From Sialis fuliginosa (taxonomy: Eukaryota > Arthropoda > Insecta > Megaloptera > Sialidae): a DNA stretch of 64,000 nucleotides. This document shows, one piece after another, positions 331-36,944 of the stretch. The DNA is taken from the NCBI GenBank assembly GCA_961205875.1, contig OY540813.1, positions 2,451,001 through 2,515,000 of the forward strand. The letters run 5' to 3'. Numbering within the stretch: the stretch's first letter is position 1; each line of letters starts with the position of its first letter. The notes beneath the pieces were generated by a model. It made no database searches. It had not been told where the DNA came from and worked only from the letters and a program-made list of their open reading frames with translations. The position numbers and the translations under genes are program-made.

Positions 331-704
331 TCGGTATATCTATAGTTGTATATGCATAATGTATACAACATATACATAATATAATATACTGTATTTATGC
401 ATGTATAATATGTTTATGAACAACAAACAACTGCGGTAAACTTATATTAACAGTAATTATAGTTTAACCACAGGATAATTTTGCTTATGAATTTAAATTG
501 GAAACACGTACAAACATTTCATCGATATTTTAAAATTAAATGTATATAGATTAATTATTGTTAAAAGCAAAATATTTATTTATTCTTTATTGTTTAAATT
601 TACCAAATATAATATTTTGTAAATGATGAAACTGCTATTACCTACTTTATTTGTTAGCTTTTGCAAAAAAAAATTGTATTTATAATGAGTTTTTTCGTCG
701 TATA
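331..704. other. AT-rich DNA, no feature seen
   Basis: This is very AT-rich with short TATA-type repeats near 340-410. I see no coding, RNA or repeat-end signal. Confidence 0.5.
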
Positions 705-905
705 TTGGATCATTTTTAACCGACTTGAAAAAAGGGCATAACTCTGACAAATATGCACCGATTTAGATGATTTTTGTTTGTTTGAAAAAGTATGTTCCCA
801 AGGTGGTCCCATATAAATTTCAACAGAATCTGAACATTAATTTCTTAGATATGACACCTAAAAGGGTAAAAAAACAGTTTTTGAAGTCGGTACTAAATTA
901 CTAAG
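705..905 (+). repeat. Family P dispersed repeat (TTTTTAACCGACTT type)
   Basis: It begins TTTTTAACCGACTTGAAAAA, runs through GGTGGTCCCATATAAAT and ends near TTTTTGAAGTCGGT. The same landmarks recur at 42540-42960 and 49185-49400, with smaller pieces near 1660-1690 and 54520-54560. From general knowledge this repeat type is abundant in Lepidoptera. Its two ends are inverted (AACCGACTT and GAAGTCGGT), which suggests a non-autonomous DNA element. No coding capacity is seen. Confidence 0.55.
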
Positions 906-963
906 CCAATAAAAAACTTAAAAAAAAGAAAATAGATTTCAAAAACTGTTAATTATTATAATA

Positions 964-1476
964 AAGTACTGGCACCAGCCTTTGCAAGGCCCCCATAATG
1001 GTAAATTTTTAATTAAATGTACTGAATTAGAACTATGTGTTGATATTTGATTACCACCATTTCTGAATATTAATCTATATACATTTAACTGTATTACAGC
1101 GTGATTTGATGACAATCGGCCAATAGGCGTCAAAATGGTGGACATTTAAACTAATCATTAGTATAATTTATTAATTAATTATTATATTATCATACCAACT
1201 GCTTTACATTGTTTCAAATTTGACGATTCTTTCTTTTATATCTTTTGTGTCGTAGTACTTATCATTTCGTTTTGTGTCCATCACTGCGTGTTCATCACTG
1301 GTTTTATCTTTGCCATTACTGGAGAAAAAACATGAACAAAATAAAAGGTTATAATTTAAAAAAGATTTAGTGACTTTGGTCATTAAATTAATTAAATAAA
1401 GAGTTACTTGTTTTATTAGTAACATGAGTTCATGAGAATTACAAAAAAACATAGCGGCCATAACTGGTGCATTTGT
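964..1476 (+). mobile_element. Family A MITE
   Basis: A non-autonomous element of about 510 bp with terminal inverted repeats AGTACTGGCACCAG at the left and a decayed CATAACTGGTGCATTTG at the right. The interior (AATTAAATGTACTGAATTAG, then TTACAGCGTGATTTGATGAC, then CATGAGTTCATGAGAATTAC) is shared with 19713, 20710, 46129, 48427 and, reversed, 55513. Other copies are flanked by TA or TAA, as in Tc1/mariner-type insertions, but the superfamily is not proven. The right end is worse preserved than in the 48427 copy. There is no transposase, so mobility would have depended on an element elsewhere. Confidence 0.8.
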
Positions 1477-2127
1477 GTTTACGTTTATGTTATATTTTAT
1501 GCATGCTTACTTTTTAGTCATGAATTTTTCTATCTTTTCACTCTGTTAAAATTATTATGAATTTATTTTTACTTTCAGTTTTAATATTTCTTGCTGACGT
1601 TTTCTATGTACTATGTACCTTTCGAAATAAACTATTATTATTATTATATACTTTTCAGTGTTTTTAGGATTTTTTTGAAGTCGGTAAAATTTTTTTTAGG
1701 TTTTTTATCATTGTATGTTATGTATATAGTTCACATTTTTACTTCTATAAAAAATCTTCATGTGGAACATAAATATTTAAAATATATAGATTTAATTATA
1801 TTAAAGGTCTTAAAAGTAGGGGTAGACAGCAAGGCAATAATAAAATAATATCGCAGTCATAAACATTTTATGGCCTAAAAATGCTCACTCATATAGACTT
1901 TTATGAATTCTTATTTAGCTGTGAAAATTGACAGTAATAACATATCGTATATGATATTTAAATTTTTATGCAGCAAGAACTGAATTTTATTGCAATATAC
2001 AGAAGATAACTTGAAGTTAGTTAGGGGAACGGTGGCTAATGTAGCACATCTAAGGAATGTTATAAATAGGAAATAATGAATGCATAAAATTTGAATTTTT
2101 TTTCGGTAGTTTGAATATTGTCAATAT
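1477..2127. other. AT-rich DNA with small family P fragment
   Basis: No gene is seen. Around 1655-1690 a CTTTTCAGTG...TTTTTTGAAGTCGGT fragment matches the end of family P. The remainder is AT-rich without recognisable structure. Confidence 0.4.
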
Positions 2128-2640
2128 AACTCATGATTTAAGAATATCGAAGATACGAGAAGCTTTGGGATCGTTTCAGATTGAGACAAAAAAAAATCGT
2201 TCCGTGTCTGTCTGTCTGTCCGTCCGTCCGTATGTGTATGTGTCCGTCTGTCCCCTGTATCCTATACGCATAACTCATGAACCACTGAACCGATATTATT
2301 GAATCTTGGTCGGATGGTTGGGTCTGACTTGAAGACGGTCCCATTTCAAAATCGTGTGTAAGGGGGAGGGGTGACATTCTAAAATATTAATTTTTTCAAG
2401 ATATTTCAATAACTTAAACTAAAATAATACACCTTCACCACAATAAAACAATGTCACTCGACACGTGTTTCGACTTCACAAGAAGTCCTAGTGACTAGAA
2501 ACCACAGTTTCTCCGTTTTTCTAGTAGTATCTCAAGAACGACACATGTTACGTAAAAATTTTATAGAATATTTTTTGTAGAGCATTAAATTTTCTATAGT
2601 ATGGGTCTAGTTTTATCCTGAACACGTTTAAATAGTTCTA
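2128..2640 (-). mobile_element. Family H element, partial
   Basis: The AATATCGAAGATACGAGAAGC block, CTGTCTGTCCGTCCGTCCGT run, ACTCATGAACCACTGAACCG, and the TATCTCAAGAACGACACATGT and GTATGGGTCTAG blocks follow in the reverse order of the fuller copy at 58114-58979. This copy therefore lies in the opposite orientation and lacks both ends. Homology of the two halves is read by eye. No coding frame is evident. Confidence 0.65.
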
Positions 2641-3143
2641 CATTTTTCCCGATTATTTATAATTTACGTACTATAATATTTTTGTTGACAAAGTCCTATT
2701 TACTATTTATATCAGCTATAACACTTTAAAAACGCCCAATTTGCGAAGTGTTTGAATTTAATGAATTTTTAATGCTACACGCACGGCCGTTATGCAAAAT
2801 AAAGAAATACTTAAAGCTAATTATAATGCAAACGGCGCTCGAAGACGCTCTCCGAACGCCGCCAAATTCACGGTTTGATTTTCTCCAAACTTAATTTTTT
2901 CTTTGTAGGTATATATACATAATGGCGAGGCTCAATCTAATTACTTATGTAATCATGCGTTTATTATGTTCAAGGACTTTAAGTTTACCCTCTATTGGAC
3001 ACCAATTCATTAAAGTTAATGGTGATTGGAGTGTTCGGAACTCAATATGACCAACCAAAGAATTTTATATAATTTGTATTTAACACAGGTAAAAAAGTGA
3101 CGTGCTCTATAACTGAAAATATCGGTATGGAGAACCATACATG
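2641..3143. other. AT-rich DNA, no feature seen
   Basis: A short GC-richer patch at 2830-2868 could form a 5-bp stem (CGGCG/CGCCG) around a loop. Otherwise nothing is recognised. Confidence 0.4.
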
Positions 3144-3815
3144 ACTTCCATGTTCTTTCTATCTTTTTAAATAACTTAAATAACTTTTCAAAAAATTTAT
3201 TTATATAATCTACTACTATGAATATACATTTCGTAATACATAAAAAACGGTTACAGCAGTTATTGCCATTTGTATATAAATATTAGTTTTCTAATGTCCT
3301 AATGTCAAAAACATTCGTAGAACAACTAATTTGACGTTTTGAATTTAGTTGCATTTGTTTTCAAGACAACATGAATTAATGACGTATTAATTAGTATTTG
3401 AAATTCAAATTTTAAGTGTGTTTTTCACCCTTTTAATAGCTGTTTGGACACGTACAAATAATAAATGTCCCTTAGATTCAATTGAACTGCAAATGTACCA
3501 AATCTTATCAAAATTAGTAGGATAATACTAGCAATATTCACTTTTTAGACGAAAAAAGTTACAAAATTTCGAATATTTCCAAAACCCCTAATCCGATTAG
3601 AACCAAAATCAATAGGTCTGAAGTACTCACTAACACAAATATTTTCCCCAAAAATAATTCAGATCGGCGTATTTTTACAGTAGTTATCGTGAACGAAAGA
3701 AAATTCTACATCCAGACACACACTATGCGGAAATTAACTTTTCTTTAGGTTTTGAAGTTAGTACAATCAGAATTTGTCATTTTCTCGGACACGATTTTTT
3801 GATGGTATTACAATA
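3144..3815 (+). mobile_element. Family C MITE, 3' end lost
   Basis: It starts ACTTCCATGTTCTTTCTATC, like the better preserved copy at 26782. It carries TTTCCAAAACC, AATCCGATTAG and TTTTTACAGTAGTTATCGTG in the same order. The right terminal repeat (AGAACATGGAAGT in the 26782 copy) is missing here, so the element fades out near 3815. No transposase is present and the superfamily is unassigned. Confidence 0.65.
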
Positions 3816-4272
3816 AAAAAGTAAAAAACATCCATAAAACATTTTTACAATAATAACAGACGATTTAATAACATCCTTCCTATAATTTGAAGCGAAATTG
3901 TTATAATTTACGATAATTATTTTAACCGGTGTCTATGTAATCAATGCATGTGAAAAAGAACTACAACGTTCACCAATTAAACAATAAAAACCCAATTTTA
4001 ATCCGTCACAGCACACTACAATCGTATTTTGATTCAATGCTTTGATCACATGCAGAATTTTCCGTGGCGTTTGAATCGTACCCACATTGTCGACGTGGGG
4101 AGGGGTGGAGACGGGGGAGGGGGGGGGGGTAGAAGGGGCAGAATTGTACAAATTAAAGTGTACAAAGCTTTACGCACATAAGATGTTTTTGATTGTTCCT
4201 GGACCTGTTTAATAATACGAGTGATTTTCAAACAGGGAAAATGTCTTTACTAAACACAATTATATTGAAATA
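3816..4272. other. AT-rich DNA with G-rich tract
   Basis: The only notable feature is a G-rich strand from about 4096 to 4139, including an uninterrupted run of about 11 G at 4119-4129, which could form a quadruplex. No gene is seen. Confidence 0.45.
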
Positions 4273-4441
4273 AGGTAAAGGCACCAGTTATCGCCGCAAG
4301 AGCAAGTTTTCGGTATTTTTGGATTAATGGGCTTGTTTTTTGTTATTCTCATGAACTCATGTTACTAATAAAACAAGTAACTCTTTATTTAATCAATTTA
4401 ATTGCTAAAGTCCGCAAATATAGTTTGTTTTTTAAATTATT
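4273..4441 (-). mobile_element. Family A MITE, truncated by family B
   Basis: It begins AAGGTAAAGGCACCAGT and continues with GAGCAAGTTTT, CTCATGAACTCATGTTACTA and AAAGTCCGCAAATATA, which is the end of family A read in reverse. It stops at TTAAATTATTAAT, where the family B left flank begins at 4442. The rest of the A copy is absent. Confidence 0.75.
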
Positions 4442-5507
4442 AATAAGGGAAGCATATTTTGTCAATCCTCCCCCTACTATTAACAAAAAAAACTAGTTAT
4501 GAAACACCTTAAATTCAAGCTTTTACTTTTTTTAAATTCTTATATAAATATTTATATAGTGACTAAATGATTCTACGTCTTATTTTCTTGTATTTTAGTC
4601 AATATTTGTATGACGAATTGAAGTTCACTGCAGGAATTTCACTAAAAAATTTTGAATTTTTGATTTCGTTAAAAGTATGTTTATTGTATAGAAAATGACG
4701 TGAAAAGTTGTTTGTTTCAAACCGCAGGTCTGTATCTCAAACCGTTCTCGAGATATAGCCTCTCAAAGTTTTAGTTTGTTCAAATTTTTGGAGAAAAAAG
4801 GCCATAACTTTTGAACGGGTGGTCGGAATTGATTTTAGTTGACGGATTTGAAATCAGCGTGTCAAAATCTATATAATGATATGTATAATACTTTAAAATC
4901 CAACAAAAAAAATTTCGTCAAAAATCGACATTTTTTTAAGGTATACCCCTTTGAATTTTTTCGATTTTTCGCGAAATTTTTTTTTTCGAGTTTTAAGGTA
5001 TTATTTATGTAATCATATAGATTTTGTCACGCTGATTCCAAATCCGTCAACTAAAATCAATTCCGACCACGCGTTCAAAAGTTAGGGCCATTTTTCTTCA
5101 AAATTTTGAAAAAATTGAAACTTTGAGAGGCTATATCTCGAGAACGGTTTGAGATACAGACCTGCGGTTTAAAACAAACAACTTTTCACGTCATTTTCTA
5201 TACAATAAACATACTTTTAACGAAATCAAAAATTCAAAAATTTTTAGTGAAATTTCCTGCAGTGAACTTCAACTCGTCATACAAATATCGACTAAAATAC
5301 AAGAAAATAAGATGTAGAGGTATTATAGTTTTATAATTGAGCGTTTAAATTAATATTAAATGCTATTTTTGATTTTTGGTTTGAAAGATGAATATTCTAA
5401 TAATACTTTTAAATTATTTATTAACTGAAAACACAGATTTGTATTAATTTTACCCATAGAGTAAGGGAAGCACTGCTTCCCCTGCTTCCATGGACGCTTC
5501 GCCACTG
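4442..5507. mobile_element. Family B palindromic (fold-back) element, copy 1
   Basis: The core 4573-5317 is an inverted repeat with arms of about 355 bp around a short loop near 4930-4961, so most of the element can fold into one hairpin. Matching landmarks are ACCGTTCTCGAGATATAGCC at 4741 and its complement ending at 5148. A 130-bp left flank (GGGAAGCATATTTTGTCAAT) is shared with the copy at 56637. On the right, 5462-5507 ends GGACGCTTCGCCACTG, which read inversely starts CAGTGGCGAAGC and resembles a hAT terminus. I infer a hAT-type MITE whose left tip is lost. Other copies are at 40991 and 56637. Confidence 0.75.
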
Positions 5508-6654
5508 CTCTACATAGTCGTAAAGAACCCTCCGCGTTGTATCACCGCTCACCCGCCAGGTGGCGACCCGTTTTTTCGAAACCGGGGGTTACATTTGTGA
5601 CCCATATGGATATTTTTTCCATACTCAACTCATCACAAAACCTGGACTTACCAATTTTGAAGCTATCATAAAATAGCAACAACAATAAATTTGATCTTGA
5701 AATGCGATTATCAAGGTCAAGTTTGCCTCCAAGATTTTTTTCACAATTTTTTTCGTATTCAGTGCATCAAATTACTTAGGAAAACCTCCTCAAATCGTCT
5801 AAACTGATTTTTTTACAATGAACTTTCTGTTACGGTCGGGACTGGTCGATATATCGACCGGCAACTTGATCGGGCACGCCACGTGAGAAATTAATTGATT
5901 TTATGTACAAATTTTGTGTAAATAAAAAGATCGATTTCATCGTAAAAATCCCCGTCCATAAAATGTTAAACAGCTATTGAAGAAGTGAAAATCTTTTAAA
6001 CACGTCATTAATTAAAAAAAATTACATATTTCGAAAGATTATAAAAAGTATTTACCGGTCGCTTGTACAATTTTGAAAAATGTTTGTTTCAGACCATACT
6101 AAATTAAATGACAACATCTTCAGTTTTCTGTAGTAAATATAATACATTTGTGGTGAAAATGTGGAGCCAGCAAGAATATTGGAGAACTAACATATTGCGT
6201 ACGGTTGATTGGAAGGGGCGCTCAAACAATTAATTACACTAATGAGAGAGTATTTGAATAGTTATTACACGCACTCACGTATTGGGAACTCTCTCTCCTT
6301 TGCTTCTGGCGAGCTTTTGTTGTTAATTTGCTATTTACGAATTGATTTGGTTCACAATAAGTCACGTAGAATAGAAAAATACTGTATTTAACGTAATTAA
6401 AATTACATTGCAGGAGAGTTCGCAAGGTACAATTTTAATACTCGAATACGCTATAAAGCTAAAAGAGGGTTAGGACTTTGGCAGTATATATGTCGCATGC
6501 AGAAGTGGTCGACCAGTTTTCATTCAAATTCGCTTATCGCAAACTTAGTAGGTTACTTTCATTTGATTATTAGTATTTTTCAAATCATTTCTCCATGTAC
6601 CAAACAAAGACAGATATTTTGAAACTAATTTGCTAGATAAAGAAGTACTCTTCG
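5508..6654. other. No gene seen; one perfect 16-bp palindrome
   Basis: This is single-copy-looking sequence with no recognised repeat. GGTCGATATATCGACC at 5844-5859 is a perfect 16-bp palindrome. A moderately GC-rich patch with ATTGG near 6205-6330 is not interpretable further. Confidence 0.45.
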
Positions 6655-6835
6655 TTTATAGTACTCATATATATTTGTGACAAGGATTCAATCGAAACAC
6701 ACACAGACAGACAGACAGACACAGAACGAAAAATGTTTGTCTTGACCTGAAACGAAAATTTTGAAATCGGAGTACATTTTTTTTTAAATCACAAAGCTTC
6801 TCGTATCTTCGATATTGCGAGGAAGCAAAATACTT
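6655..6835 (+). mobile_element. Family H element, short fragment
   Basis: ACAAGGATTC, a CAGACAGACAGACAGACAC run, TGTTTGTCTTGACCTGAAAC, and CTTCTCGTATCTTCGATATT followed by GCGAGGAAGCAA match 58670-58855 in the same order and strand. Both ends of the element are missing. Confidence 0.65.
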
Positions 6836-7674
6836 ATAAATGTATGTACGCAGCTTTCTAATAGATCTTAATAGATCTGAGTAGATCTAAAAAAATTAAA
6901 TACAAAAATATTTTAAAAACTAAAACTCGACTATACCTACGTTTGTAGATATCAAATTAAAAATATAAATAAAATTTATAGCGTTATATTGGTAGAAATA
7001 TTGATCAAAATAAAGCACATGAAGATAACTTGTATATGTGGTATAAATTGTATCAACATTTTGTTTTTAATTTAATAAAAATGTCAATAATACAACAACT
7101 TCAACTACCCAGCGCCTACACCATTTAATTGAAATTTTTTATTCCAACAAACGAAAGGTATATAATCTAATTTTGAAGTAAACTGAGGAAAAATAAAATC
7201 TCATGTATTTCATATTTTGTTTATTAACAAAAAAAAAATAATTAAAATTCACTTTTGATTACCACTGACATAATATATATTGTTTTGCGAGAGACGGAAA
7301 TTTCAGGATATTCTGTTTGCGTTTTAATTAAGACTTGTGCTTCCTCCCCCCCTCTGTATCCGACATCCCCCCCCCTCCTCAGAACCCCGTTGCTCACAGT
7401 TGAATGGGTTTGTTTCTACTGTCTCTAACCTAACAATATTACTCTTATTAAATGCAGCCGATTGCTTTTGTTCTACCAAGTTCCTCTTGCACGTTCTAGA
7501 GGTTCAACATGCGTGGTCGAGTCGCCGAACGTTTGTCATAATATTTAAAAGTGTTGGGATTCGTAAAATATGTTAATTGTGTGGAAAATATCTATTTAAT
7601 ATCGTATTTTTATGACCGAATACATTTTTTCTACAATCGTGTAAAAAAGTAGGCTTTTTCATTGACATTTCAGT
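6836..7674. other. AT-rich DNA with AGATCT and C-run patches
   Basis: ATAGATCT occurs repeatedly at 6860-6890, recalling the AGATCT-rich MITE at 20188. C-rich tracts lie at 7345-7380. No gene is seen. Confidence 0.4.
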
Positions 7675-7729
7675 ACTTTTGCGCTCGCCGTGCGTAAAAG
7701 TTACTTTTACGCACGGCGAGCGCAAAAGT
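7675..7729. repeat. Perfect GC-rich 55-bp palindrome
   Basis: Two perfect 27-bp inverted arms (ACTTTTGCGCTCGCCGTGCG, then TAAAAGT, and the complement) flank a single T at 7702. Outside the arms the match continues weakly (CAGT on the left, ACTGC on the right). The arms are markedly GC-rich in an AT-rich neighbourhood and contain several CpGs. This could be two transposon ends joined head to head, or a fold-back whose loop is lost. It would extrude readily as a cruciform. Confidence 0.9.
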
Positions 7730-8680
7730 GTTTACTGCTTCCATAGTAATACATACATTTTTTTACGATTAATGAATTTTATAAATACTATTGTATTATA
7801 GTATTGAACAAATTACTAAAATTTAATTATTGTAATAAAAAAAATTAAATAAATTATAAAAAATACTTTCTCGGCACCATTCATGTTAATATGTGTAATT
7901 TTCATATACAATTTAGATTTTGCAGATGGTAAATTTAAAATTACAGAATTTGCAGCTTCTGATATCTCTGGTGGTTGTTCTTTCTCAGTATCACCACTTA
8001 TCCATCTTATATTATAGAATAACAAATGAAGAAACACATTTTAATGAAAATAGAACTGTAAAAAAATTTTGTCCAAAGCTTACTAGAGTTCAATTTTAAT
8101 ATTAATATAGCAAAATACAAATTATATAAATTAATTATTATATTATATTATTGTTAATATTATATAATATAGAAAAAATATTATGTGCATCTCGAGTGTA
8201 AAATGCGTTTTTCGCGCCTCGACTAACAAACATTCCTACTCATGTAAAAAACTATAATTTTACACCCTAGATACACAAATATATATTTTAGCAGAAACCA
8301 ATTTTTTTAAATAATATAAGCAGAAATTTATTTATTAATTTCTCATATCTGGCTTCAGACAAAATTATCATTAAATATTAAGTGCATCCCTAAAGTAATT
8401 ATTTCTACAAAGATTTTAAAATAAGTTTTAAAATTATTATACTTAAACTTTTATAATCAATTAAGCGAAATAAATTATTGTTGCAAAATAACATTAATGA
8501 AGAAGTTACCATTAAAAATAACAAGTTTATTTTCCTTCGAAAATATTCCAATTATGAAAATGGCTTTAAGAGAGAATTATCAAGCGACCAAAACTAGCCG
8601 GAGAAAGTTGAGAGATCTCGACAAAGAATACATGCCGTCGTGGCGTCAGTAGAATTACCAAAGTAGCCTCAGTGGGGCGT
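7730..8680. other. AT-rich DNA, no gene seen
   Basis: Very AT-rich with no repeat end recognised. Weak open frames here have no domain content. Confidence 0.4.
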
Positions 8681-8683
8681 TGA

Positions 8684-8698
8684 GGGGGGGGGGGGGGG
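8684..8698 (+). repeat. G15 homopolymer
   Basis: Fifteen consecutive G. It is one of many long G or C runs in the window and is followed by a GC-rich patch CAGGGGCGGTGCTGCGCCCA at 8730-8749 that resembles a transposon terminus, with no partner seen. Confidence 0.9.
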
Positions 8699-8863
8699 TT
8701 GTAATGTTTAATGTCAGGGCAGAGACCCACAGGGGCGGTGCTGCGCCCAGGGGAAAATCCCTTCGGTCGAGCTGCATTAAATCTAAATTTTGAAGACTTG
8801 TCATTAAATTTAAATAATATGTGATATATACAAGGTTTGAGTTGAAGGGTGTATTAAATTTAT

Positions 8864-10195
8864 TACTAGCTGTTACCCGCGACTTCGTCCGCGTGAAATT
8901 TGTACTTTTAGGGTTCCGTAAAAAACTAGTATTAAGTATATAAATTAGTATATAAATTGTATACCGATTAAGATGAAATTTGGTAACAGATGTGATAAGA
9001 TTTTTGGAAAAAAAAAATTTTTTTTGGACCTTCCAATTAGAGCTGGGCGCGGGCCGTGAATTTTTCGGGTCACGTTGGGTCACGGCCGTGACCCGACGTG
9101 ACGTGAGCGATTTTCAAATATTGAATCGTGAGCGGGCGTGATCGTGAGTCAAATTAAAACAGTCGGGCGTGACCGTGCGTGAGTACATTTTTCTCGTGCG
9201 TGAGTTCGTGAGTATATTTTGAAGATAATTTGTTTATAAACTTATTTGATATTTTTTTTAATATCTGAACTAATAATGCATAAATATAATAATGTTTTAA
9301 AACGAATTTTGACATTAAAACATATAGTATGAAAAATAAATGTTATTTTAGGAAGCATTTTCACATGGTCAGTATTGCCAACTATATCAGAACACCAAAA
9401 AAAGATTTAAAAATACATTGTAGCTTTATTTTATTATTGTTTTGTTTGTAATTTCTTTTACTAGAATGCAGTTTAGAAGAAATAATATGAATATAAAATA
9501 CACACAATATATTGCACGTAAAAACATAAATTTTCATCATTTCAAAATTTAATTTACAACAATTACATTAAATCGGGTCACGCGTGTGACCCGTCGTGCG
9601 TGAGTAAAAAAATAGTATTCGTGAGCGTGCGTGATCGTGAATACTTTTTTTTGTAACCGTGAGTGAGCGGGCGTGACTAAATTTTTTTCTCTCGTGAGCG
9701 TGCGTGATCGTGAGCAAAAATTACTCACGCGCCCAGCTCTACTTCCAATAGAATGAAAAGTATATCCAAATTTTTTTCCCACTTATCCCATTGAGTGGGG
9801 TGTCTTTAGATAGGTCTCCTAAAATGCAACAAAACATGTTTTAGGACCTTTTCATTTTAACCTTTCAGTCACGATATATTTGCTTTTCAATGTGGTTATC
9901 AGAAACAAAATCTGAGAAAATTTAATTAGTATTTTCAATGAAAATTATAGCAAAAATAGTTTTTGGAATAACTCTTTATTAGAAATCGTAGTGAGAATGA
10001 CTACGGAACCCTAGCATGTGCATGCCCAACACGCACTTGACCGTTTTATTTTATTTAATCAATTTTCTGGGATAAAAATGTCATTCGTCAGGATGCAAGC
10101 TATCTTACTGCCAAATTTTATCAAAATTGGTTCAGTGGTTTAGCCGTTATCGGACAGGCAGACAGACAGAGTTACTTTCGCATTTATAATATTAG
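8864..10195 (+). mobile_element. Family O dispersed element, interrupted by a hAT MITE
   Basis: It starts ACTAGCTGTTACCCGCGACT, which continues with a TCGTCCGCG segment, and ends GTTTAGCCGTTAT, CAGGCAGACAGACAGA, CTTTCGCATTTATAATATTA. Such ends mark a family widespread in lepidopteran genomes. Pieces here lie at 18778, 23957, 31430 (reverse), 39775, 53009 and 61205. The body is split by a hAT insertion at 9038-9741; removing that and one CTTCCAAT restores continuity. I see no reverse transcriptase or transposase frame, so the class (non-LTR tail or non-autonomous DNA element) is undecided. Confidence 0.65.
9038..9741. mobile_element. hAT MITE with CGTGA-rich subterminal arrays (family I)
   Basis: Perfect 14-bp terminal inverted repeats TAGAGCTGGGCGCG bound a 704-bp element. 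It is flanked by a perfect 8-bp target duplication CTTCCAAT (9030-9037 and 9742-9749), which identifies the hAT superfamily. No transposase is encoded; the middle (about 9230-9560) is AT-rich filler. Both subterminal regions (9050-9210 and 9575-9730) are packed with CGTGAG, GCGTGA and GATCGTGA words, giving high CpG density. By analogy with Ac-type hATs, such arrays are probably transposase binding sites. It sits inside family O and is therefore younger than it. Confidence 0.92.
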
Positions 10196-35140: not shown

Positions 35141-35532
35141 TGTAGAGTATGTTATTAGAAGGTACAAAATATATTCACTTATAGATAAATGTTCTGAGAA
35201 CATAAACATCCCATTTTTATTTTAGTGTTGTTTACCGTTGCTATAAAAAAAATCTAGGAGGATCTATGTATAATCTATTCATAACAGGATACAATACCAT
35301 TCTAAACTGCAACATGAGCAGTTTGAGCAGTGTTTATTTTAGTTTACAGCAACATTAAGCTTATCGAGGTTTCTACTAGATGTATTTCTAACCGCTATAT
35401 TTAATATACATAGAATAAGACATAGCAACGTCCGAGACCATAGAATTTTGTTAACCTAACCTAAGTCAATTATATTAACGATTTTTCGTAATATCTCCTT
35501 TCTGGTTGGTCCAAGATATATAAAGACAAGGT
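35141..35532. other. No gene seen; 22-bp tandem
   Basis: AAGATATATAAAGACAAGGT and AAGGTATATAAAGACAAGGT (35513-35555) are a short direct duplication that runs into the fold-back arm at 35533. A CCTAACCTAA motif lies near 35455. Confidence 0.45.
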
Positions 35533-35570
35533 CAAGGTATATAAAGACAAGGTAGTCTCAACAATTCCTT

Positions 35571-35604
35571 GACCAATCAGCGTTGGCGCGGGAATTGACG
35601 TCAC
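35571..35604 (+). promoter_or_regulatory. CCAAT box, E2F-like site and CRE in left arm
   Basis: Within 34 bp are GACCAATCAG (CCAAT box), TTGGCGCGGGAA (good match to an E2F site) and TGACGTCA at 35596-35603 (perfect cAMP-response/ATF palindrome). These are sequence matches to well-known consensus sites. Promoter activity is inference. Confidence 0.5.
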
Positions 35605-35986
35605 TTGAGGGATGTATTCAAATGCTATAAATGTATAATAGAATATCAATTACACAAAATTCCTTTATTTATTCTTGTTTTCGTATTTTTTGATATTTTA
35701 ACAACACAGATAATCAAATAAATACAAATTCGACATAGCAAAATCATAAAGAGCTGTCAGAATCGCATAACGTATTGCCAACTTAAGAATAGTAAAAATG
35801 ACGCCTTCCCGAATTGACCAAATTGTCTGTGACAGCTTTTTTCTGATTTTACAATGTCGAATTTGTACTTATTTAATTGTATGTGTTGTTAAAATACCAA
35901 AAAATACGAAAACAAGAATAAATAAAGGAATTTTGTGTAATTAATATTCTATTATAAATTTATAGCATTTGAATACATCCCACAAG

Positions 35987-36021
35987 TGACGTCAATTCCC
36001 GCGCCAACGCTGATTGGTCAA
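35987..36021 (-). promoter_or_regulatory. CRE, E2F-like site and CCAAT box in right arm
   Basis: TGACGTCA at 35987-35994, TTCCCGCGCCAA and CTGATTGGTC repeat the left-arm cluster in inverted order. All three motifs are preserved, although the arms differ elsewhere by scattered substitutions. Confidence 0.5.
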
Positions 36022-36057
36022 GGAATTGTTGAGACTACCTTGTCTTCATATACCTTG

Positions 36058-36116
36058 AGACAAGGTAGTCTCATCAGCTACTTGACAAATCATCGTTGAC
36101 GCGAGAATTGACGTTC
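36058..36116 (+). repeat. Third, diverged copy of the fold-back tip
   Basis: AGACAAGGTAGTCTCATCAG, then CATCGTTGACGCGAGAATTG, aligns with the left arm tip, but the CCAAT, E2F-like and CRE motifs are mutated. It suggests a second, mostly lost element inserted next to the first. Confidence 0.7.
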
Positions 36117-36204
36117 ACTATCTGAAAAAATACAACTTGCCACCGTTTGTGAACTGGTGCAAAATCTAGTTAAATGAATATTTTAATAATAACAAAATGT
36201 TTAG

Positions 36205-36944
36205 AAAGGACCCCGCAGTTTTTGATAGGGAAATGGCTTTCAGTCAATTTCTTTGAAACCAACTGGAAAATATTCTCTAAATCATCCCGATTAAAAATCT
36301 CAATGGTCGCAACCGCCTAAGTTCCCGAGGTCTCGAGCAAAAAGCTGTTTTGTACCTAATACTGCAATAAAAAAATCGATATAGTACAGGATTTCCCAAG
36401 TTAATTTATTATAACAAATGGAAGAAAACTTTAAATACAAAAGTTGTCAGGCTAGACAAGCAGCATATTTTTAAAATAAATACATTTCTATAAGGTGTCC
36501 CATAAGTGTGTTACAAATCAAAGTTATATTTTTTATGACAACTAATTTTCTATTGTTTTTATTTTACAATTTAATATTTTTAATACTATCGCTAGTAGCT
36601 GGCGCTGACGGCACTACACATACCTTAACATGTTTTATAAAAACTTTATTATAATCCATAAAATAATTTGCTAGAACTTGCAAACTTTAACAACATAAAA
36701 ATCTAGAAATTAAATAAACAAAACGATACATAAAAATTAATTTCTTTGTTCAAAATGTCCTGTACTATATCGATTTTTTTATTGCATTATTAGGTACAAA
36801 ACAGCTCTTTGCGCGGGACCTCGGGAACTTAGGCGGTTGCGACCATTGAGACTTTTAATCGGGATGATTTATAGAATATTTTCCAGTTGGTTTCAAAGAG
36901 ATTGACTGAAAACCATTTCCCTATCAAAAACTGCGGGGTCCTTT
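36205..36944. mobile_element. 740-bp inverted-repeat element
   Basis: AAAGGACCCCGCAGTTTTTG starts the left arm and its complement ends at 36944. The arms (about 185 bp) include CAACCGCCTAAGTTCCCGAG, TTTTGTACCTAATACTGCAA and ATCGATATAGTACAGGA with complements at 36762-36850. The roughly 365-bp middle is AT-rich with no open frame. Outer flanks read GTTTAG and TTTAAA, so a short T/A target is possible but not proven. It is a typical long-TIR MITE, single copy in this window. Confidence 0.85.

What the first reader, a model, noticed from the sequence alone, without database searches (positions are those of the whole stretch)
35533..36057. Fold-back element whose arms carry CCAAT, E2F-like and CRE sites
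Both arms keep ACCAATCAG, TTGGCGCGGGAA and a perfect TGACGTCA within 35 bp, although other arm positions have diverged. A nearby third copy (36058-36116) has lost all three. Such a mobile element would scatter a ready-made cell-cycle/cAMP-type promoter module in divergent orientation. I know of no described MITE with this combination, but cannot search.
Basis: partly seen in the sequence, partly recalled or inferred. Interest (0 to 1): 0.75.

Follow-up and report, generated by a model that had tools for sequence, protein, structure and literature searches.

The report
Abundant fold-back transposon, promoter-like sites unproven
This is one copy of a jumping hairpin-shaped DNA element present roughly a thousand times or more in this genome; its ends contain look-alikes of gene-switch sites, but those sites show no clear extra protection from decay, so they more likely belong to the element's own machinery than to the host's genes.

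Summary
The fold-back element is real and the coordinates exact. Window 35533-36057 is a complete 525-bp element with 204-bp arms and a 9-bp target-site duplication. Its family is abundant: 22-base arm words with up to 2 mismatches occur 1,953-2,933 times, about 980-1,470 two-armed equivalents. 31 of 40 copies have perfect 9-bp duplications. It is a non-autonomous inverted-repeat transposon (MITE), probably Mutator-like; no autonomous partner was found. Both arms carry ACCAATCAG, TTGGCGCGGGAA and TGACGTCA. The 'third copy' is the remnant of an older relative's arm into which this element jumped.

The conservation test gives no support. Motif positions are not significantly better kept than neighbouring outer-arm positions in any of three subfamilies. 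In subfamily B the E2F-like word is worst kept (11 of 41 arms intact); the CCAAT-like word is best kept, short of significance. Three subfamily consensus sequences share the block, so I read it as element-level sequence (transposase contact and/or parental promoter). Precedents: cell-cycle enhancer motifs in MuDR ends; E2F sites spread by plant MITEs. Promoter activity is untested.

The parts
35533..36057 (.). complete non-autonomous fold-back element (MITE), 525 bp
   Evidence: same ends in the other copies fetched; 9-bp TSD
35533..35736 (+). left arm, 204 bp (the arms of the 40-copy consensus are perfectly complementary over 204 bp)
35854..36057 (-). right arm, 204 bp
35737..35853 (.). spacer between the arms; no ORF of 110 aa or more overlaps the element
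35524..35532 (+). target-site duplication, left copy AGACAAGGT
36058..36066 (+). target-site duplication, right copy AGACAAGGT
35538..35545 (+). TATATAAA near the tip (TATA-like by recall of the consensus; right-arm counterpart 36045-36052 carries one change)
   Evidence: sequence; function not tested
35572..35580 (+). ACCAATCAG, left arm (NF-Y/CCAAT-like, name recalled)
35583..35594 (+). TTGGCGCGGGAA, left arm (E2F-like, name recalled)
35596..35603 (+). TGACGTCA, left arm (CRE, name recalled)
36010..36018 (-). ACCAATCAG, right arm
35996..36007 (-). TTGGCGCGGGAA, right arm
35987..35994 (-). TGACGTCA, right arm
35512..35532 (+). first 21 bases of an older relative's arm (target of the insertion)

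Best explanation
The feature is one copy of a high-copy, non-autonomous, long-armed MITE that moves by cut-and-paste using a transposase made elsewhere, most likely of the Mutator-like (MULE) type. Shown: defined ends CAAGGTATATAAAGACAAGG, 9-bp target duplications, 204-bp arms, at least three subfamilies, and nesting of this copy inside an older relative. Inferred: the transposase grips the outer arm of both ends and makes a 9-bp staggered cut. The CCAAT/E2F/CRE-like block at bases 40-71 from each end belongs to that element-level end sequence: a transposase contact and/or the remnant of the promoter of the autonomous parent, inherited by the copies. It is not a module maintained for the host; once inserted, copies decay at the motif about as elsewhere in the outer arm.
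For: Same ends and 9-bp duplications: 31 of 40 copies perfect, 33 of 40 with at most one mismatch. Family size: 22-base arm words at up to 2 mismatches give 1,953, 2,933, 2,462, 2,583 and 2,907 places, with reversed controls 0, 0, 0, 2 and 5. Consensus arms are identical over 204 bp. No consensus difference between subfamilies A1, A2 and B falls in bases 34-72, while 13 of 17 diagnostic positions fall in 73-129. Within subfamilies, substitutions at motif against other outer positions: A1 5/1972 vs 10/2652 (p=0.60), A2 9/348 vs 17/466 (p=0.43), B 81/1167 vs 76/1525 (p=0.04, motif worse). A MULE with a 9-bp duplication exists in this genome: L090 has FLYWCH plus MULE domains and TATTTTATT on both sides of its ends (read). 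Literature passages: MULE duplications are 8-11 bp (PMC6446971); MULE ends hold both transposase sites and promoters (PMC3310237); the Galileo transposase binds about 70 bp from the end (PMC3688188).
Against: No autonomous element with these ends was found: in 10 of 10 MULE-domain loci read to about 4.8 kb on either side there was no match to the arm tip beyond 12 bases (E 0.75); the best match anywhere was a 31-base inner-arm stretch in L092, E 0.002, and L090's ends are different. A1 shows fewer changes at the motif than in the inner arm (5/1972 vs 57/7615, p=0.011), though its outer non-motif positions do too (10/2652, p=0.049). In B the CCAAT-like word alone is nominally better kept than the outer and inner rest (10/358; p=0.09 and 0.056). 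The outer block is not uniquely conserved between subfamilies: only 1 diagnostic position falls in 130-204 (outer vs inner p=0.18; motif 0 of 29 vs rest 17 of 175 p=0.14). Copies were picked by similarity, not at random.
Confidence: 0.62

Rival explanations
1. The arm is a working promoter/enhancer: host CCAAT-, E2F- and CRE-binding proteins bind it, so each insertion brings a divergent, cell-cycle- or cAMP-responsive promoter to its surroundings, and some copies have been kept for that.
For: Three recognisable words within 32 bases, in the consensus of all three subfamilies; a TATA-like word near the tip; the E2F-like word seems largely confined to this family genome-wide (1,678 places vs 3 for the reversed word; places not checked one by one). 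The CCAAT-like word is nominally the best kept in B. Precedents in MuDR and in plant MITEs.
Against: No significant extra conservation of motif positions over other outer positions among inserted copies; the E2F-like word is intact in only 11 of 41 subfamily-B arms and is significantly worse kept there than its surroundings (p=3e-7). No expression or chromatin data.
Confidence: 0.17
2. A special case inside the best explanation: the block is the left-over promoter of the parent element's transposase gene (as in MuDR), useful when the element still carried a gene and now a passenger in the MITE.
For: Position within the end sequence, presence in the three subfamily consensus sequences, MuDR precedent (PMC3310237, passage).
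Against: The parent has not been found, so no gene start can be placed next to the block.
Confidence: 0.15
3. The motif cluster is a chance resemblance with no binding at all; many GC-rich 30-mers can be labelled with transcription-factor names.
For: The words were chosen after seeing the sequence; conservation tests give nothing clear and specific to them.
Against: A perfect 8-base CRE, a full CCAAT consensus and a 12-base E2F-like word together look unlikely in a roughly 31% GC background, though no probability was computed because no motif list was fixed beforehand.
Confidence: 0.2
4. The main consequence of the element is its hairpin transcript: read-through RNA folds into a 200-bp duplex feeding small-RNA silencing, and the arms' symmetry is kept for that.
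For: The transcript would fold at -325.6 kcal/mol, z -43; six changes of the window copy relative to A1 are present in both arms.
Against: Any inverted repeat folds so; after insertion arms are hardly more alike within an element than between elements (mean distance A1 0.0131 vs 0.0139, 34 elements; A2 0.0655 vs 0.0626, 6; B 0.1052 vs 0.1168, 19 of 22), so symmetry seems set at the source and not maintained in place.
Confidence: 0.06

Closest known systems
MuDR / Mutator long terminal inverted repeats (maize)
   Same: About 200-bp ends with 9-bp duplications (from recall) that hold transposase sites and a promoter with cell-cycle enhancer motifs (citing passage seen in PMC3310237; Raizada et al. 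2001 itself not read)
   Different: MuDR carries genes and its promoter was tested in plants; here the element has no gene, no MULE partner with the same ends was found, and nothing was tested experimentally
E2F-site-carrying MITEs of Brassicaceae
   Same: High-copy MITEs scatter E2F-like words; most such words of the genome lie in transposons, mainly MITEs (passage seen in PMC12595863; Henaff et al. 2014 not read)
   Different: There the sites are reported to bind E2Fa; here binding is unknown, and CCAAT- and CRE-like words lie next to the E2F-like one
Phantom/Foldback-type MULEs, e.g. Tm1 of root-knot nematodes
   Same: Long arms, 9-bp duplications, MITE-like members (passages of PMC3169594)
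   Different: Tm1 arms contain a variable number of 13-15 bp motifs; the arm here has no such repeats
Galileo (Drosophila)
   Same: Fold-back shape; [quoted passage not shown]
   Different: P-element superfamily with 7-bp duplications (recalled); here 9 bp

Membership tests
MITE | short element without coding capacity | tested here: met
   525 bp; no ORF of 110 aa or more overlaps it
MITE | terminal inverted repeats and a target-site duplication of fixed length | tested here: met
   204-bp arms; 31 of 40 perfect 9-bp duplications
MITE | high copy number with homogeneous length | tested here: met
   514-526 bp in 39 of 39 fetched best-scored copies (chosen for full-length similarity); 1,953-2,933 arm words
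MITE | mobilised by an autonomous element with the same ends | tested here: inconclusive
   no such element among 10 MULE-domain loci; other superfamilies not searched
Mutator-like (MULE) superfamily | 8-11 bp target-site duplication | tested here: met
   9 bp; range from a passage of PMC6446971
Mutator-like (MULE) superfamily | MULE transposase in an element with the same ends | tested here: inconclusive
   10 of 10 MULE-domain hits lack these ends in the 9.9 kb read around each; introns and missed copies possible
Foldback/Galileo type | arms made of internal tandem repeats | tested here: not met
   no direct repeats of 12 bases or more in the left arm; one trivial 2.2-copy, 10-base array in the right arm
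Host-maintained regulatory transposon | binding-site positions better conserved than neighbours among inserted copies | tested here: not met
   motif vs other outer positions p=0.60, 0.43, 0.04 (wrong direction); CCAAT-like word alone in B p=0.09; copies not a random sample
Host-maintained regulatory transposon | factor binding, open chromatin or transcription at copies | not testable with these tools
   no functional data available here

The most novel reading that the evidence does not exclude
Young copies of this MITE are live divergent promoters or decoys: with 1,678 exact copies of TTGGCGCGGGAA in the genome, apparently nearly all supplied by the family (inferred from 3 for the reversed word), it would set the genome-wide landscape of E2F/NF-Y/CREB binding, either wiring nearby genes to the cell cycle or titrating these factors, and would be transcribed when cells divide, which would favour its own spread.
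Probability: 0.1. Interest if true: 0.65.

Novelty: new member of a known kind. Interest (0 to 1): 0.3.

Why it matters
If the arms bind host cell-cycle factors, this would be a counterpart, in a host whose group I did not determine, of the MuDR and Brassicaceae cases, with a natural experiment built in: roughly a thousand or more copies of different age with two arms each, and a subfamily (B) in which the E2F-like word is mostly damaged. If not, it is a cautionary example: three textbook motif names in one repeat arm, none clearly conserved beyond its surroundings.

Tried and rejected
Search for the autonomous parent through the MULE domain: 10 hits, all ten loci read at 9.9 kb, none with these ends. 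The idea that the third copy is an independent, motif-less family: rejected, because its two pieces join across the focal element and its far side is another repeat. The idea that the two arms of each inserted copy are kept alike by conversion: not supported, intra-element distance is not clearly below inter-element distance. Looking for the element in viral contigs: two exact scans, 0 matches each. Literature: NF-Y + E2F + CREB + terminal inverted repeat, 0 papers; miniature inverted-repeat + insect + promoter activity + CCAAT, 0 papers; MITE + TGACGTCA, 9 papers, none on transposons to judge by titles and abstract starts; the listings were seen as listings only, apart from the papers named. 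[quoted passage not shown] These searches cover only the open library.

Rows dropped and limits: arms under 70% identity to the A consensus were left out: 3 of 44 subfamily-B arms; all 68 A1 and 12 A2 arms were kept. L087 (one intact arm) was left out of the counts. Copies were the 40 best-scored of 2,270 and 2,389 candidates, so they over-represent well-kept copies; of the places I fetched 20 stretches of my own choice. In some searches, 24 of 204 positions that are diagnostic or differ in the window copy were excluded; without that exclusion A1 shows a larger inner/outer gap (0.0103 vs about 0.003). One search ended in an error after printing and was redone; one search misplaced the CCAAT interval by one base and reported 0 intact CCAAT; one search corrects it. 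One search found the junction in only two of the loci because the others were handled in the wrong orientation or lacked the search word. The word-retention model takes the first 100 exact places (one chromosome, in one case two) as standing for the genome and assumes a single age. L025 and L027 were counted as imperfect duplications although an end indel may be to blame.

Full report
What is there. Positions 35533-36057 form one complete element of 525 bp. A similarity search scored the 40 best of 2,270 candidates; the 39 others are spread over many contigs and match at about 94-95% identity from base 1 to base 525, save two whose match is short by 2 and 10 bases at one end. I fetched these 39. 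They are 514-526 bp long, with ends CAAGGTATATAAAGACAAGG or close variants. Directly outside the ends, 31 of 40 copies (the window's included) have a perfect 9-bp direct repeat and 33 of 40 at most one mismatch; among the 31, the repeat begins with a purine in 27 and ends with a pyrimidine in 28. The window copy's repeat is AGACAAGGT at 35524-35532 and 36058-36066. This is the footprint of transposition.

The consensus of the 40 copies has arms that are perfectly complementary over 204 bases. 34 of the 40 form one young group (A1) with 1-7 differences from the consensus; six, including the window copy with 29, form an older group (A2) with 29-44. A third group (B), met through L086, was sampled with 20 further stretches. 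Six of the window copy's changes relative to A1 are present in both arms, so the source elements seem to have had matching arms; but after insertion arms within one element are about as different as arms of different elements, so the match appears to be set in the source and not kept up in place.

The third copy. Bases 36058-36114 are 86% like the left arm. Its missing first bases are found at 35512-35532, so the focal element jumped into the outer end of an older relative of the B type, which has since acquired changes in the CCAAT-like and E2F-like words and ends inside TGACGT, where another widespread repeat takes over. It is a decayed relic, which makes its loss of the sites uninformative about selection.

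How common. Arm words of 22 bases with up to 2 mismatches occur 1,953 times (bases 4-25), 2,933 (36-57), 2,462 (51-72), 2,583 (130-151) and 2,907 (155-176); the same words read backwards occur 0, 0, 0, 2 and 5 times. That is roughly 980-1,470 two-armed equivalents. The 12-base word TTGGCGCGGGAA occurs 1,678 times against 3 for its reversal, so nearly all its copies in this genome probably belong to this family; I did not check them one by one. TTGACGTCA occurs 7,639 times against 3,951 for its reversal, so the family can supply only a part of all CRE-like sites.

Are the sites kept? Three tests. First, inside the window copy: 9 of 204 arm positions differ, 0 of the 32 over the motif; chance 0.24. 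Second, within subfamilies: substitutions against the subfamily consensus at the 29 motif positions, other outer positions, and inner positions were, for A1 (68 arms) 5/1972, 10/2652, 57/7615; for A2 (12 arms) 9/348, 17/466, 21/1344; for B (41 of 44 arms) 81/1167, 76/1525, 228/4466. Motif against other outer positions: p = 0.60, 0.43 and 0.04, the last in the wrong direction; motif against inner positions: p = 0.011 (A1, motif better), 0.25 (A2, nominally worse) and 0.017 (B, worse). Word by word, the E2F-like word in B is far worse kept than its surroundings (58/481 against 76/1525, p = 3e-7), the CRE is ordinary (13/328, p = 0.48), and the CCAAT-like word is nominally better (10/358, p = 0.09 against outer and 0.056 against inner). 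Intact words in B number 29 of 41 (ACCAATCAG), 11 of 41 (TTGGCGCGGGAA) and 31 of 41 (TGACGTCA), all three together 6 of 41; in A1 63 of 68 and in A2 5 of 12 arms have all three. Third, genome-wide: comparing exact with near-exact words gives losses of about 3.2% per base (36-57), 3.5% (40-71), 4.1% (51-72), 3.3% (tip, 4-25), 4.6% (155-176) and 6.8% (130-151); the motif is no better kept than the tip. The model is crude and rests on the first 100 exact places of each list.

What the block is for. Between subfamily consensus sequences, no difference falls in bases 34-72, three fall at 29-33, thirteen at 73-129 and one at 187. Differences among sources reflect what the moving element tolerates, whereas differences among inserted copies reflect what the host tolerates. 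The first are absent from the block; the second are not clearly reduced there. That pattern is statistically weak (outer against inner p = 0.18; motif against rest p = 0.14), but it fits element-level function better than host-level function. P-superfamily transposases bind some 40-70 bases from the end (PMC3688188, passages), and MuDR ends hold both the transposase site and a promoter with cell-cycle enhancer motifs (PMC3310237, passage). I therefore favour a transposase contact and/or inherited parental promoter. A TATA-like word lies at bases 6-13 of the arm; whether anything starts there is unknown. The names NF-Y, E2F and CRE are recalled; no binding was tested.

Which superfamily. A 9-bp duplication and long arms point to MULEs, whose duplications are 8-11 bp (PMC6446971, passage). 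The genome does hold MULEs: ten domain hits, of which L090 encodes FLYWCH plus MULE domains between 1.5-kb repetitive arms and is flanked by TATTTTATT on both sides (read). None of the ten has the ends of the present family in the 9.9 kb read (the best match was a 31-base inner-arm stretch in L092, E 0.002). Membership in MULE is therefore likely, not shown. It is not filed under Foldback or Galileo because the arms have no internal tandem repeats to speak of and the duplication length differs from Galileo's (recalled).

Verdict. Real, abundant, mobile, and carrying the words described, but the sites show no clear conservation of their own, and both halves of the idea (cell-cycle motifs in a MULE end; MITEs scattering E2F sites) have precedents in plants. 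Interest is modest unless functional data show activity.

Noticed in passing
window 36205-36391 and 36758-36944: A second fold-back element right beside the first: arms of 187 bp, 96% complementary, ends near AAAGGACCCCGCAGTTTTTG, about 740 bp in all. No duplication was established.
   Followed up: partly
window about 36104-36188: Part of another widespread repeat (820 first-look candidates for a query that contained it), next to which the older arm lies.
   Followed up: partly
L090 (G000:C7:18226800-18236700), 691-9642: An apparently complete MULE with a 468-aa FLYWCH/MULE ORF, 1.5-kb arms of roughly 105-bp repeats and a 9-bp duplication TATTTTATT: a Phantom/Foldback-like autonomous candidate with different ends.
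   Followed up: partly
L066:1606-2444: A fold-back of about 840 bp with 96% complementary outer arms beside the same repeat as at 36104-36188.
   Followed up: no
subfamily B arms, bases 51-53: About 7 of 41 arms share a variant GCC in place of TTG in the E2F-like word, suggesting a sub-subfamily that moved without it; an alignment effect is not excluded.
   Followed up: no
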